From assembly GCF_001884135.1 (NCBI RefSeq), contig NZ_MAOC01000081.1, forward strand, positions 1-64,000: a stretch of DNA of 64,000 nt, in the 5' to 3' direction. Origin of the DNA: Bacillus nitratireducens. Its GTDB lineage: Bacteria; Bacillota; Bacilli; Bacillales; Bacillaceae_G. A program made the position numbers and the translations under genes. This document shows, one piece after another, positions 3,961 through 27,031 of the stretch. The notes under the pieces are model-generated. The model was not told the DNA's origin. It did not search any database and saw only the letters and a program-made list of their open reading frames with translations. Every line of letters starts with the position of its first letter. Positions within the stretch are counted from its first letter, which is position 1.

Positions 3961-3982
3961 GACAGTGATAATTTTATAGTTT

Positions 3983-4074
3983 GCTAGGAGAGCTGGTGTT
4001 GCCAGCTGAGAGTAGGCCGTAAGCCTTTGATCCTTTTCATTACCTGATCTAGATTATGCTAGCGTAGGGAAGCA
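3983..4074 (+). promoter_or_regulatory. TPP riboswitch 1 (THI element)
   Basis: The conserved THI-box features are present: CTGAGAGTA after an extended hairpin, CCTTTGATCC, ACCTGATCTAGATTATGCTAG and GCGTAGGGAAGC. It is followed by its own terminator. Known to bind thiamin pyrophosphate and to stop transcription when TPP is plentiful. Confidence 0.95.
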
Positions 4075-4091
4075 ATTCGGACACTAACAAT

Positions 4092-4131
4092 GAGTCCCCG
4101 TTTCTTTGCGTATAGAAACGGGGCTTTTTTA
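4092..4131 (+). terminator. Terminator of TPP riboswitch 1
   Basis: A 12-base-pair GC-rich hairpin (5' arm GCCCCGTTTCT-like, loop about 8) is followed by T6. It is the expression platform of the first aptamer. Confidence 0.9.
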
Positions 4132-4152
4132 TTTGAAAATTTCATATTGAAA

Positions 4153-4238
4153 CCACTAGGGGTGCTTGATGTGCTGAGAGAGGAATAATCCTTAACCCTT
4201 ACAGACCTGATCTAGGTAATACTAGCGAAGGGAAGTGG
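4153..4238 (+). promoter_or_regulatory. TPP riboswitch 2 (THI element)
   Basis: A second complete THI element follows 22 bases after the first terminator: GGGGTGCTTGATGTGCTGAG, AACCCTTACAGACCTGATCT and GCGAAGGGAAGTGG. Its P1 3' arm AAGTGG can pair with CCACTT of the next hairpin, which is the usual antiterminator logic. Confidence 0.95.
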
Positions 4239-4269
4239 ACAACGAATAAATGTATAATTTTATTTGCTG

Positions 4270-12572: not shown

Positions 12573-12601
12573 TTTACTTTTTCCAAATACAGGAGTAATA
12601 T
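12573..12601 (+). promoter_or_regulatory. Promoter for c-di-AMP riboswitch transcript 1
   Basis: TTTACT and TAATAT are 17 bases apart, ending 28 bases before the aptamer. AGGAG directly precedes the -10, as it does in the kdp promoter at 13689-13717. Confidence 0.6.
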
Positions 12602-12628
12602 ATCAGCCAGAATACATTTTTTGTAATA

Positions 12629-12764
12629 CGCTGAGTCCAAATGTATGGAGCGGAGGAACCAATTGGTGCGTCGTCACTAGGGGTGAATCTTTCAATTTTG
12701 AAAGTAGGGCTACTCTCAAAGCCCGAATCCGACAGCTAACTTCGTAAGCGTCTTGAGAGAGGGC
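12629..12764 (+). promoter_or_regulatory. c-di-AMP riboswitch 1 (ydaO/yuaA type)
   Basis: All landmarks of the ydaO element are present: CGCTGAG, GGAGCGGAGGAACCAATTG, GGGGTGAATC, the AAAGTAGGGC block and CCCGAATCCGACAGCTAAC ending in CGTAAGCGTC. It is nearly identical in core to the kdp copy 1.1 kb downstream. No clear intrinsic terminator follows it, unlike the kdp copy, so the way it controls the next genes is not obvious. Confidence 0.93.
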
Positions 12765-12859
12765 GGTGCCATGATGGATATATCACTTCGTCGGTCTGAT
12801 TAGTATAGGAGAATATCAATCTATGTTTGAGTTCTTTTATGCTAAGGAGGATGAGGTAC

Positions 12860-13246
12860 ATGGAATTAACGCTTATTTGCGTTGGAGAAGAAAATAAGGT
12901 AAAGAGTTTAAGAGAGCTAGCAGCATTTCAGCATGAGTTAATTATTTTTACAGCAAATGAAGAGATAGCTGCTGAAGTTAGGAATTGTGGGTTTGATTGG
13001 ACTTATAGCTGTAGTAAGGCGCAAGATTTTACTAGTATTTGTGAATGTATTAAGAAGGTGATTTTACTAGGGGATGAGCTTTCAATCGTTAGCTTCTTTA
13101 CAGAACACATTCGCTTTTCTTTTCAGGCACCTATTACTGTTGTTACAAGGAATAAACGATATCCAGCGAGGCTCTATGAAACAATGGGAGCTAAATTTGT
13201 TGTGTTTACGAATTGTGATAATATTTCTTTTTTATTTTTTGAATAG
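12860..13246 (+). CDS. Degenerate TrkA-N/RCK-like small protein under c-di-AMP control
   Basis: 128 residues. I see a single Rossmann-like domain: a first strand LTLICVG that has lost the GxGxxG loop, a middle segment VILLGDELSIVSFFTEHIRF, and a final segment ITVVTRNKRYPARLYETMGAKFVVF that matches the last part of TrkA-N domains of Ktr/Trk gating subunits. The RCK-C domain, which binds c-di-AMP in KtrA, is absent. AAGGAGG is ten bases before the chosen ATG. It lies behind a c-di-AMP riboswitch and just before kdp, so a role in potassium or osmotic control is inferred, not shown. The family assignment is from pattern only. Confidence 0.65.
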   Translation: MELTLICVGEENKVKSLRELAAFQHELIIFTANEEIAAEVRNCGFDWTYSCSKAQDFTSICECIKKVILLGDELSIVSFFTEHIRFSFQAPITVVTRNKRYPARLYETMGAKFVVFTNCDNISFLFFE

Positions 13247-13262
13247 GGCGGGGGAAAAGAAG

Positions 13263-13493
13263 ATGAAGGTGTTGTTACTAGGAGATATAGCGAATCGTTG
13301 GGCGGTATCGGTAGAGCGAGTACAAGAATTGGTGGTGCTTGATCCTATTTTTCCAAGGCCCTATATTATATTGCCATCGAAAGACGCTTTATATTTAAAA
13401 ACAGATGTTATCGAATATGAGCAGCTACATGCAGAATTGTCACAAGTTTATATTCGTGGGAGAAATTTGCGCGTGTTTTTGCGTGGAGAATAA
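13263..13493 (+). CDS. Small AlpA/excisionase-like HTH protein
   Basis: 76 residues. GDIANRWAVSVERVQELV followed by DPIFPRP and then ALYLKTDVIEYE is the layout of AlpA/HTH_17 winged-helix proteins that bind DNA. It starts 16 bases after the TrkA-N-like gene with GGGGG upstream, so the two are one operon under c-di-AMP riboswitch 1. It could regulate its own region or kdp. There is no integrase nearby, so an excisionase role is unlikely. Confidence 0.65.
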   Translation: MKVLLLGDIANRWAVSVERVQELVVLDPIFPRPYIILPSKDALYLKTDVIEYEQLHAELSQVYIRGRNLRVFLRGE

Positions 13494-13499
13494 ATAGTG

Positions 13500-13560
13500 A
13501 AAAAAAGAGCGAATGCTGAGTGCAACAAGCTATGCACTTCATGCCATTCGCTCTTTTTAT
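13500..13560 (+). terminator. Terminator of the small c-di-AMP-controlled operon
   Basis: A long hairpin with outer arms AAAGAGCGAATG / CATTCGCTCTTT and an inner GTGCA / TGCAC stem, ending in T5. It isolates the two small genes from kdp. Confidence 0.85.
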
Positions 13561-13638
13561 TTCGTATTTAAAAGATCATTTCTGTGAAAAAGAAAGAAAA
13601 GATGAGAAAACAGATGAAATAATATTAATAACACTCAA

Positions 13639-13688: not shown

Positions 13689-13717
13689 TTTACAAGTTAA
13701 AAATAGAGGAGTATATT
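13689..13717 (+). promoter_or_regulatory. Sigma-A promoter of the kdp operon
   Basis: TTTACA and TATATT are exactly 17 bases apart, about 45 bases before the second c-di-AMP aptamer. Confidence 0.7.
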
Positions 13718-13761
13718 TACTCTCATAAATCATTCATGAAATTTCCAAAAAAAACCTAAAA

Positions 13762-13897
13762 TCGCTGAGTTCCAGAAATGGAGCGGGGGAACCAATTTTG
13801 TGCATCGTCACTTGGGGTGAATCTTTCAATTTTGAAAGTAGGGCTACTCTTTAGGCCCGAATCCGACAGCTAACCTCGTAAGCGTTTAGAGAGGAGG
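13762..13897 (+). promoter_or_regulatory. c-di-AMP riboswitch 2 (kdp leader)
   Basis: A second ydaO element: CGCTGAGTTCC, GGAGCGGGGGAACCAA, GGGGTGAATC, AAAGTAGGGC, CCCGAATCCGACAGCTAACC and CGTAAGCG. It is followed directly by a terminator, giving a c-di-AMP off-switch for kdp. This arrangement is established for kdpFABC in Bacillus thuringiensis. Confidence 0.95.
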
Positions 13898-13918
13898 TTT
13901 ACTTTGTGTTGTTCATTT

Positions 13919-13951
13919 CGAACACTAAGTAGAGCTTAGTGTTCTTTTTTT
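13919..13951 (+). terminator. Terminator of kdp c-di-AMP riboswitch
   Basis: A perfect ten-base-pair hairpin (GAACACTAAG, loop TAGAG, CTTAGTGTTC) followed by T7, 42 bases before the first small ORF of the kdp operon. Confidence 0.92.
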
Positions 13952-13993: not shown

Positions 13994-14098
13994 ATGTTAG
14001 ATGTTGTAATGATCGGGATTTTTGTTGTATTAGTTGCATCGATGGCAAGCCTGGCAAGTTGGTCAGATAAAGTTGTGAAAGAAGGGAAGCAATCATGA
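13994..14098 (+). CDS. 34-residue single-span membrane peptide upstream of kdpF
   Basis: An ATG-started ORF of 34 codons with GAGGGG upstream. The product is one hydrophobic helix (MIGIFVVLVASMASLASW) with a charged tail SDKVVKEGKQS. Its end overlaps the kdpF start, a coupling pattern used by real operon genes. It is not KdpF, which follows. It may be an extra small subunit or assembly peptide of the Kdp pump; that is inference. Confidence 0.65.
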   Translation: MLDVVMIGIFVVLVASMASLASWSDKVVKEGKQS

Positions 14099-18621: not shown

Positions 18622-19776
18622 GTGAGTATTTTGTATGCGGATGACTATAAACCAACGTTTCAAAGGCGAACGCCAGAGGAATATTTAGAATATATTCGTC
18701 AGCAAAATCGGGGGAAGTTAAAGCTATATGTAGGAGCAGCTCCAGGAGTAGGGAAAAGTTATAAAATGCTCTTTGATGCAAGAGAGATGAAAAAAGATGG
18801 TATTGATATTGTCATTGGTTTAATTGAAACGCACGGCAGAATCGAGACGGAAGAAGCAATTGCTGATTTAGAAAAAGTCCCTTTAAAAGAAATAGATTAT
18901 AAAGGAAAGGGATTTTATGAGCTTGATGTGGAAGGAATTATAAAGCGTGCGCCGCAAGTAGTTGTAGTGGATGAACTCGCGCATAGTAATATTCCTGGAT
19001 CTAAAAATAAGAAGCGTTATATGGATGTTCAAGAATTGCTAGAGGCTGGTATATCAGTATTATCAGCATTTAATATTCAACATTTAGAAAGTGTTCATGA
19101 CATTGTAGCTCAAATTACGAATGTAAAAGTAAGAGAGCGTATTCCAGATTTTATTTTGCAAAAAGCAAATGAAATTCAACTTGTTGATGCAACACCTGAG
19201 GTACTCCGGAAGAGATTAGTTGATGGAAAGATATATAAGGAAGAAAAAATAAAGCAAAGCTTACAAAACTTCTTTACGCTTAATAATTTAGGGGCACTAA
19301 GGGAATTGTCGCTTCGTGAAGTTGCAGATGATATGGATGATAAAATTAGCCAAACAGTTATAGAACCGATTGGGGTGAAAGAAAAAATTCTCGTTTGTGT
19401 ACAATACAGTTCAACAGCAGAGAAATTAATACGGAGAGGTTGGCGCATGGCCGATCGGTTAAACGCTGAATTGTATGTGTTAAACGTAGAAAGGGAAAAT
19501 ATAGATTCCCTTTCAGCAGGGAAAAAGCAAACAATTGAAGAGTGGAAATCGCTAACGAATCAATTTGATGCGAGCTTTGTATTAGAAGAAGCAAAGGGAA
19601 GAAAGCCCGCTGATGTTATTATTGAAGTTGCAAAAAGACTACAGGTGACACAAGTTTTACTTGGGCAATCGGCGAGAACACGGTGGGAAGAAATACGAAA
19701 AGGTTCTATTGTAAATGAAATTATGAGACAAACGAAGTATATTGATATTCATATCGTTGCTGATCAAAGAGCTTAA
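18622..19776 (+). CDS. kdpD: Truncated KdpD: KdpD + USP domains, no membrane or kinase part
   Basis: 384 residues against roughly 900 for a full KdpD. The KdpD N-domain carries Walker A GAAPGVGKSY (38-47) and Walker B VVVVDELAHSN, followed by a universal-stress-protein-like domain from about 250 on (ILVCVQYSSTAEKLIRRG). The protein ends there with a normal stop and terminator: no four-helix membrane domain, no histidine kinase, and no kdpE follows. The USP domain of Staphylococcus aureus KdpD binds c-di-AMP, so this may be a c-di-AMP sensor acting on the pump directly; inference. The start is GTG at 18622 or, better spaced from AAAGG, TTG at 18631. Confidence 0.9.
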   Translation: MSILYADDYKPTFQRRTPEEYLEYIRQQNRGKLKLYVGAAPGVGKSYKMLFDAREMKKDGIDIVIGLIETHGRIETEEAIADLEKVPLKEIDYKGKGFYELDVEGIIKRAPQVVVVDELAHSNIPGSKNKKRYMDVQELLEAGISVLSAFNIQHLESVHDIVAQITNVKVRERIPDFILQKANEIQLVDATPEVLRKRLVDGKIYKEEKIKQSLQNFFTLNNLGALRELSLREVADDMDDKISQTVIEPIGVKEKILVCVQYSSTAEKLIRRGWRMADRLNAELYVLNVERENIDSLSAGKKQTIEEWKSLTNQFDASFVLEEAKGRKPADVIIEVAKRLQVTQVLLGQSARTRWEEIRKGSIVNEIMRQTKYIDIHIVADQRA

Positions 19777-26903: not shown

Positions 26904-27007
26904 CTCTTATCTTTCAACACAATGTGTTGTAAGAATTAGCACCGTGCCCATAAATGGGTCGGTTGCCGGGCTTCGTAGGGCTCATCCCTCCACCTGCTCT
27001 TGATAAG
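26904..27007 (-). promoter_or_regulatory. SAM-I riboswitch (S-box)
   Basis: Read on the minus strand: CTTATCAAGAG, GGTGGAGGGA, TGAGCCC, GAAGCCCGGCAACCG, CACGGTGCTAATTC and GAAAGATAAGAG. These are the invariant S-box blocks in order, with P1 closed by CTTATC / GATAAG. Binding SAM should cause termination at the following hairpin. Confidence 0.95.
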
Positions 27008-27031
27008 ACATCGAATATTTAACTATTTCGA

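What the first reader, a model, noticed from the sequence alone, without database searches (positions are those of the whole stretch)
12573..13560. A c-di-AMP riboswitch operon of two unnamed small genes next to kdp
A full ydaO riboswitch precedes a 128-residue protein that looks like a TrkA-N (RCK-N) domain without its GxGxxG loop and without RCK-C, and a 76-residue AlpA-like DNA-binding protein. The next operon is kdp, with its own c-di-AMP riboswitch. This may be a c-di-AMP-linked regulator pair for potassium or osmotic response. The riboswitch is seen directly; the fold calls and the role are inferred.
Basis: partly seen in the sequence, partly recalled or inferred. Interest (0 to 1): 0.75.

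Follow-up and report, generated by a model that had tools for sequence, protein, structure and literature searches.

The report
Second c-di-AMP switch beside kdp
Next to a bacterial potassium-pump operon lies a second small operon with its own sensor RNA for the messenger c-di-AMP, possibly acting on protein synthesis rather than on transcription, and it encodes a small DNA-binding protein and a partner of unknown role.

Summary
A complete c-di-AMP (ydaO) aptamer at 12619-12766 (109.4 bits, cut-off 38) precedes two intact genes (128 and 76 aa) closed by a strong terminator-like hairpin; the kdp leader with its own aptamer follows. The protein calls hold in part. The 76-aa protein joins small phage DNA-binding proteins and, through them, HTH_17 (AlpA/excisionase-type) domains. 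The 128-aa protein has no family; its RCK-N resemblance is at background: 2 of 100 shuffles and 9 of 90 window segments score as well.

New here: the 7 leaders compared (kdp, six from plasmids) each have an intrinsic terminator close behind the aptamer; this one has none. It has a long hairpin burying the Shine-Dalgarno sequence (-28.4 kcal/mol, z -4.7), the most stable of 31 gene starts, though buried SDs as such are common here. Translational control is the likeliest reading. The two aptamers are 87% identical, closer than to the six others, suggesting duplication. Direction (OFF) is inferred from the class; folding did not show the switch. Conservation could not be tested, and structure prediction was off.

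The parts
12573..12601 (+). putative promoter: TTTACT, 17 nt, TAATAT
   Evidence: seen in sequence; same 17-nt spacing and 20 of 29 identities with the kdp promoter at 13689-13717, the best of all places on both strands of the window, but five others reach 19 of 29; not in the consensus scan
12619..12766 (+). c-di-AMP (ydaO) riboswitch aptamer
   Evidence: RF00379 109.4 bits, full model 1-134; 25 of 26 model pairs are standard
12760..12797 (+). candidate anti-sequestor hairpin
   Evidence: -9.0 kcal/mol; first structure to form after the aptamer in folds of growing transcripts; role inferred
12785..12857 (+). Shine-Dalgarno-sequestering hairpin (candidate expression platform)
   Evidence: -28.4 kcal/mol, z -4.74, 0 of 200 shuffles as good; lowest energy of 31 SD-bearing starts; SD accessibility 0.17 is second lowest (tied), with seven other starts at 0.26 or less
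12844..12850 (+). Shine-Dalgarno AAGGAGG of the first gene
   Evidence: sequence
12860..13246 (+). P0001, 128-aa protein without a known family, alternating beta/alpha pattern by eye; RCK-N resemblance not significant
13263..13493 (+). P0002, 76-aa HTH_17/AlpA-like DNA-binding protein
   Evidence: phrog_4996 E 1.5e-4; 35% over 52 aa to phage TP-84 gp39; hhalign 95% to the phage family, family 96.8% to HTH_17
13499..13563 (.). terminator-like hairpin closing the operon, on both strands
   Evidence: 14-nt perfect arms; -28.8 and -29.7 kcal/mol on the two strands
13753..13898 (+). kdp c-di-AMP aptamer (neighbouring operon, comparator)
   Evidence: RF00379 115.2 bits; 87% identical to the first aptamer in the core
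13920..13944 (+). intrinsic terminator of the kdp riboswitch (comparator)
   Evidence: geometry agrees with PMC6488665 (passages)

Best explanation
This is a two-gene operon under its own c-di-AMP riboswitch. Its leader is a sister of the kdp leader that has no transcription terminator and most likely acts on translation. When c-di-AMP is high (potassium plentiful), the long hairpin at 12785-12857 holds the Shine-Dalgarno sequence of the first gene and little protein is made. When c-di-AMP falls (potassium limitation), a competing hairpin at 12760-12797 keeps the upstream arm busy and the ribosome site opens. The products are a small HTH_17-type DNA-binding protein (P0002) and a co-made alpha/beta partner (P0001). 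Most likely they form a local regulator for the low-potassium state, in a lineage whose kdp locus has only a truncated KdpD. Shown: aptamer, open frames, terminator-like hairpins, HTH relationship, absence of a leader terminator, stability of the SD hairpin. Inferred: ligand response, its direction, the translational level, the partnership and the regulatory targets.
For: Aptamer far above cut-off. The 7 comparison leaders (kdp and six from Bacillaceae plasmids, before APC permease or TrkA-TrkH genes) each have a terminator of -12.8 to -20.5 kcal/mol close behind the aptamer; here the best candidate is -3.7. SD hairpin -28.4 kcal/mol, z -4.74, 0 of 200 shuffles; most stable of 31 gene starts. 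The competing hairpin forms first in folds of growing transcripts. A c-di-AMP OFF switch without terminator, thought to act on translation, is reported in C. glutamicum (PMC9960051, passages); the kdp switch is OFF (PMC6488665, passages). P0002. Only the annotated frames look coding.
Against: Equilibrium folding buries the SD whether or not the aptamer is held folded, and the SD hairpin is favoured over the competing one by about 7 kcal/mol, so no ligand-dependent change was computed. A poorly accessible SD is not special in this window: one start is lower, one is equal, and five more are at 0.19-0.26 among 31. An ON switch is not excluded: in the unconstrained fold, strands of the aptamer pair with the competing-hairpin region. 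No relatives were reachable, so neither hairpin could be tested by covariation. No target of P0002 is known. P0002's detected relatives are phage proteins, which may mean a captured phage gene with an unrelated role.
Confidence: 0.42

Rival explanations
1. The riboswitch acts on transcription after all (an unrecognised terminator, pausing or Rho), as in kdp, and the SD hairpin only sets a low translation rate.
For: The B. subtilis prototype and the kdp switch end transcription (PMC9960051 and PMC6488665, passages). A Streptomyces one without canonical terminator seems, from cut passages of PMC9960051, still to affect transcription. An RNA-seq survey whose data sets include one from B. anthracis reports termination at loci of five families, ydaO-yuaA among them; I did not see which loci (PMC12121620, passages). 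Folding shows no ligand-dependent change of the SD.
Against: No terminator better than -3.7 kcal/mol between aptamer and gene, against -12.8 to -20.5 in 7 of 7 comparators.
Confidence: 0.28
2. P0001 is a worn-down RCK-N (KtrA-like) subunit left behind from a riboswitch-ktrA arrangement, either a relic or a non-ligand-binding regulator of a potassium channel.
For: On a Cytobacillus plasmid a ydaO aptamer directly precedes TrkA-TrkH genes. The hhalign match to RCK-N is weak but colinear over 98 columns; the best motif match to KtrA, at residues 90-118, is reached by 5 of 2000 shuffles.
Against: 9 of 90 window segments match RCK-N as well, 2 of them over 90 or more columns; 4 of 92 frames of the window score higher on that motif; no GxGxxG loop, no room for RCK-C; no Pfam, PDB or plasmid relative.
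Confidence: 0.25
3. The two genes are a captured phage-type module (small DNA-binding protein plus accessory) that happened to land behind a duplicated kdp leader and has no role in potassium response.
For: P0002's detected relatives are phage proteins of Geobacillus, Bacillus and Coprococcus phages.
Against: The neighbours look like thi and kdp genes by eye; they were not searched for phage families. A sister leader still 87% identical to the kdp one, with the aptamer intact, argues that the control is in use. The phage bias may reflect the collections searched.
Confidence: 0.2
4. The operon is a decaying relic: frames still open but no longer of use.
For: Coding score below that of each of the ten training genes (0.10 and 0.12 against 0.22-0.55 left-one-out); no relatives of P0001 found.
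Against: Two intact frames, strong SD, intact aptamer and terminator-like end; the absence of relatives probably reflects collections without this bacterial group (a ThiD query from the same window also found none).
Confidence: 0.08

Closest known systems
c-di-AMP riboswitch of the kdpFABC operon, Bacillus thuringiensis BMB171 (PMC6488665)
   Same: same aptamer class; the window's second leader has the published geometry (start site 370 nt before kdpF; riboswitch 147-346 nt before it); the first aptamer is 87% identical to the second
   Different: the kdp leader ends transcription at a terminator; the first leader has none and carries an SD-sequestering hairpin; it controls two uncharacterised genes
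presumed translational c-di-AMP riboswitch of nlpC, Corynebacterium glutamicum (PMC9960051)
   Same: no canonical terminator; proposed action on translation
   Different: other phylum, other target gene; there supported by reporters, here predicted from the sequence
tandem c-di-AMP riboswitch doublets (77 reported in PMC9481103, passages)
   Same: two c-di-AMP aptamers near each other
   Different: here 986 nt, two genes and a terminator-like hairpin lie between them; each aptamer heads its own operon
HTH_17 / AlpA / excisionase-type DNA-binding proteins; small phage proteins such as Geobacillus phage TP-84 gp39 (phrog_4745, phrog_4996)
   Same: one HTH domain followed by a wing with the DPxFPxP and LYL-D-I-Y pattern
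   Different: in a chromosomal riboswitch operon, not a phage gene cluster; 24 residues follow the shared part, 14 in gp39
RCK-N / TrkA-N domain (KtrA, KtrC, TrkA)
   Same: alternating beta/alpha pattern judged by eye; weak colinear match
   Different: no GxGxxG, no RCK-C, profile match at background level

Membership tests
c-di-AMP riboswitch (RF00379) | sequence and structure match above the curated score | tested here: met
   109.4 bits against 38, full model; 25 of 26 pairs standard
c-di-AMP riboswitch (RF00379) | binds c-di-AMP and changes gene expression | not testable with these tools
   needs in-line probing and reporters
transcription-terminating c-di-AMP riboswitch | intrinsic terminator after the aptamer | tested here: not met
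   best candidate -3.7 kcal/mol; 7 of 7 comparators -12.8 to -20.5; none in the scan of this leader
translational riboswitch | structure that can bury the Shine-Dalgarno sequence | tested here: met
   most stable of 31 starts, though low SD accessibility is common here
translational riboswitch | burial depends on the ligand state | tested here: inconclusive
   buried in both modelled states; competing hairpin found but about 7 kcal/mol weaker
HTH_17 / AlpA-like DNA-binding protein (P0002) | profile similarity to the family | tested here: met
   alone 40.9% with score 23.0, best of 100 shuffles 14.6; with five phage relatives 96.8%. Pfam itself gives no hit for P0002
HTH_17 / AlpA-like DNA-binding protein (P0002) | binds DNA | not testable with these tools
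   no experiment
RCK-N / TrkA-N (P0001) | profile match above background | tested here: not met
   1.4%; 2 of 100 shuffles and 9 of 90 segments as good
RCK-N / TrkA-N (P0001) | GxGxxG nucleotide-binding loop after strand 1 | tested here: not met
   the corresponding stretch reads CVGEENKV
RCK-N / TrkA-N (P0001) | Rossmann-type fold | not tested
   structure prediction switched off

The most novel reading that the evidence does not exclude
A duplicated kdp leader has become a translational c-di-AMP switch that makes a small DNA-binding regulator, with an alpha/beta partner, when c-di-AMP is low. The regulator then acts on kdp or other potassium genes and takes the place of the missing KdpE: an RNA-to-protein cascade in which one messenger uses two different RNA mechanisms side by side.
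Probability: 0.16. Interest if true: 0.65.

Novelty: new variant of a known kind. Interest (0 to 1): 0.45.

Why it matters
If right, c-di-AMP controls not only potassium transporters in this group but also a transcription factor. Two sister aptamers a kilobase apart would work through different mechanisms, a natural experiment on how expression platforms change after duplication. It would also offer a candidate DNA-binding regulator in bacteria whose kdp operon is reported to lack a working KdpDE pair (PMC6488665, passages). The claim is cheap to test with reporters.

Tried and rejected
Relatives: P0001 in genome contigs, viral contigs, plasmids, phages and 13 plasmid records: none. P0002 in viral contigs, plasmids and phages: only the phage family; P0002 was not searched in genome contigs. 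A ThiD query from the same window also found nothing in genome contigs, which suggests that this bacterial group is not held there; these scans need exact short peptide matches, so the absence does not show that the genes are rare.

RCK-N membership of P0001: rejected on the present evidence. The HPr-kinase N-domain hit (E 0.11) and the designed-protein hit 7kbq (E 0.11; the same chain also hits the Cytobacillus TrkA protein at E 0.002) are taken as generic alpha/beta matches. The S19 hits of TP-84 gp39 (best E 0.0018) are taken as chance.

Ligand-dependent refolding: looked for and not found at equilibrium. The forced-pair energies used wrong coordinates and are replaced.

Literature: nine searches; none of the listings and passages that I saw names this operon. 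The locus tags searched were guesses, supplements could not be read, and Nelson et al. 2013 (PMC3830699) is not held.

Full report
What is there. The window reads thi genes, this small operon, kdp (thi genes and kdpA-C named by me from their sequences; kdpF and KdpD). The stretch 12573-13563 holds a promoter-like site, a complete ydaO/c-di-AMP aptamer at 12619-12766 (109.4 bits, cut-off 38), 93 nt, P0001 (12860-13246, 128 aa), P0002 (13263-13493, 76 aa) and a terminator-like hairpin with 14-nt perfect arms and T-runs on both strands. The kdp leader follows with its own aptamer (13753-13898, 115.2 bits) and terminator (13920-13944). Codon statistics trained on ten genes of the window make the annotated frame the only positive one of six for both genes, though both score below each training gene, also when that gene is left out of training.

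The organism. No whole genome is held. The kdp leader matches the published geometry: start site 370 nt before kdpF (PMC6488665, passages) and riboswitch 147-346 nt before it (PMC11302148, passages). The kdp locus has a 384-aa KdpD in which Pfam finds the KdpD sensor and Usp domains and no kinase domain. This fits the B. cereus group, where PMC6488665 reports riboswitch-controlled kdp with truncated KdpD (section 11 read). The species is not known to me. PMC4568413 states that BMB171 has four annotated ydaO riboswitches (passages); the passages do not say where.

The leader. Seven comparison leaders were examined: kdp, and six chosen from the 26 plasmid records (five before APC-family permease genes, one before TrkA-TrkH; four are from Priestia and 85-98% alike, so the seven are not independent). 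Each has an intrinsic terminator of -12.8 to -20.5 kcal/mol close behind the aptamer; the first leader of the window has nothing better than -3.7. Instead, 12785-12857 folds into a hairpin of -28.4 kcal/mol (z -4.74; 0 of 200 shuffles) that pairs six of the seven bases of AAGGAGG. Of 31 gene starts with a Shine-Dalgarno sequence in the window this one has the lowest energy; among the next four are starts downstream of the SAM and the TPP riboswitches. SD burial as such does not set it apart: its mean accessibility of 0.17 is second lowest (tied), and seven other starts lie at 0.26 or below. A second, weaker hairpin at 12760-12797 uses the upstream arm of the first and forms earlier in a growing transcript. 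This looks like a translational expression platform. Against it: at equilibrium the SD stays buried with the aptamer held folded or free, and the SD hairpin wins by about 7 kcal/mol. The direction is inferred from the class, whose members are considered OFF switches (PMC9960051, passages; kdp in PMC6488665). PMC9960051 says that action on translation had not been shown for this class before its nlpC riboswitch.

Origin of the leader. In the core (12629-12759) the two aptamers of the window are 87% identical; the first is at most 77% and the second at most 79% identical to the six plasmid ones. The promoters share TTTAC, a 17-nt spacer and AGGAGTA; 20 of 29 positions agree, the best place in the window, but five other places reach 19, so this alone is weak. 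A duplication of the kdp leader followed by a change of the expression platform is the simplest account; other riboswitches of the same genome could not be compared.

P0002. PHROGs gives phrog_4996 at E 1.5e-4. TP-84 gp39 aligns at 35% over 52 residues (pairwise E 8e-10; in the phage collection E 0.04-0.07). Four relatives of gp39 from Geobacillus, Bacillus and Coprococcus phages were scanned: three match phrog_4996 (1.5e-5, 1.8e-5, 0.012), all four match phrog_66, excisionase and transcriptional regulator (best 8.7e-6). In Pfam two of the four match HTH_17 weakly (0.0078 and 0.077, below the cut-off), one passes the Phage_CI_repr HTH model barely (22.1 bits against 22), and one has no HTH match. 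gp39 itself has no Pfam match. By hhalign P0002 matches the five-member phage family at 95% (score 44; best of 60 shuffles 14.8) and a set of 11 HTH_17 domains at 41% alone (score 23.0; best of 100 shuffles 14.6) or 96.8% with its family. A small HTH_17-type DNA-binding protein is well supported; its binding and targets are not known.

P0001. No significant family in Pfam, NCBIfam, PHROGs or the PDB (best Pfam hit E 0.11, below its cut-off). The RCK-N match is colinear over 98 columns but scores 17.0 with 1.4% probability. 2 of 100 shuffles and 9 of 90 segments from stop-to-stop frames of 180 aa or more, coding or not, do as well, 2 of the 90 also over at least 90 columns; four real members held out in turn score 97.9-99.9%. 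The motif near its C-terminus that resembles KtrA is reached by 5 of 2000 shuffles, but four of 92 frames of the window score higher on it. So an alternating beta/alpha protein is likely by eye, RCK-N is possible but unproven, and the missing GxGxxG and RCK-C would make it at best a changed one.

Mechanism and limits. The best reading is a c-di-AMP-controlled pair made when c-di-AMP is low, with P0002 as a DNA-binding regulator. My judgement of the parts: aptamer about 0.97, HTH in P0002 about 0.85, OFF direction about 0.7, translational level about 0.55 (lowered from 0.6), a role in potassium gene control about 0.35, RCK-N about 0.25. Not testable here: conservation, covariation of the platform, structure, and any target.

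Noticed in passing
window 13994-14098 (+): A 34-residue hydrophobic open frame with its own Shine-Dalgarno-like GAGGGG lies between the kdp terminator and kdpF and overlaps the kdpF start (ATGA). No Pfam family; NCBIfam gives a SipW-type signal-peptide domain just over its cut-off (20.1 bits against 19). It may be an extra small membrane protein of the kdp operon.
   Followed up: partly
window 12823-12897 (+): A 24-codon frame starts in the loop of the SD hairpin behind an AGGAG and overlaps the start of P0001; if translated it could open the hairpin. Too short to judge.
   Followed up: no
window 3976-4250 (+): Two TPP riboswitch aptamers in tandem (69.2 and 74.0 bits).
   Followed up: no
window 26904-27009 (-): SAM (S box) riboswitch (85.5 bits).
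   Followed up: no
window 18622-19776 (+): KdpD in which Pfam finds the sensor and Usp domains but no kinase domain, as reported for this group in PMC6488665.
   Followed up: partly
window 13920-13944 and L001 8142-8177: The terminator stem of the kdp riboswitch is nearly the same sequence as that of riboswitches before APC permease genes on Priestia plasmids, so the whole switch, platform included, is shared between different target genes.
   Followed up: partly
L002 8001-8930: On a Cytobacillus solani plasmid a c-di-AMP riboswitch stands directly before TrkA-TrkH potassium uptake genes.
   Followed up: no
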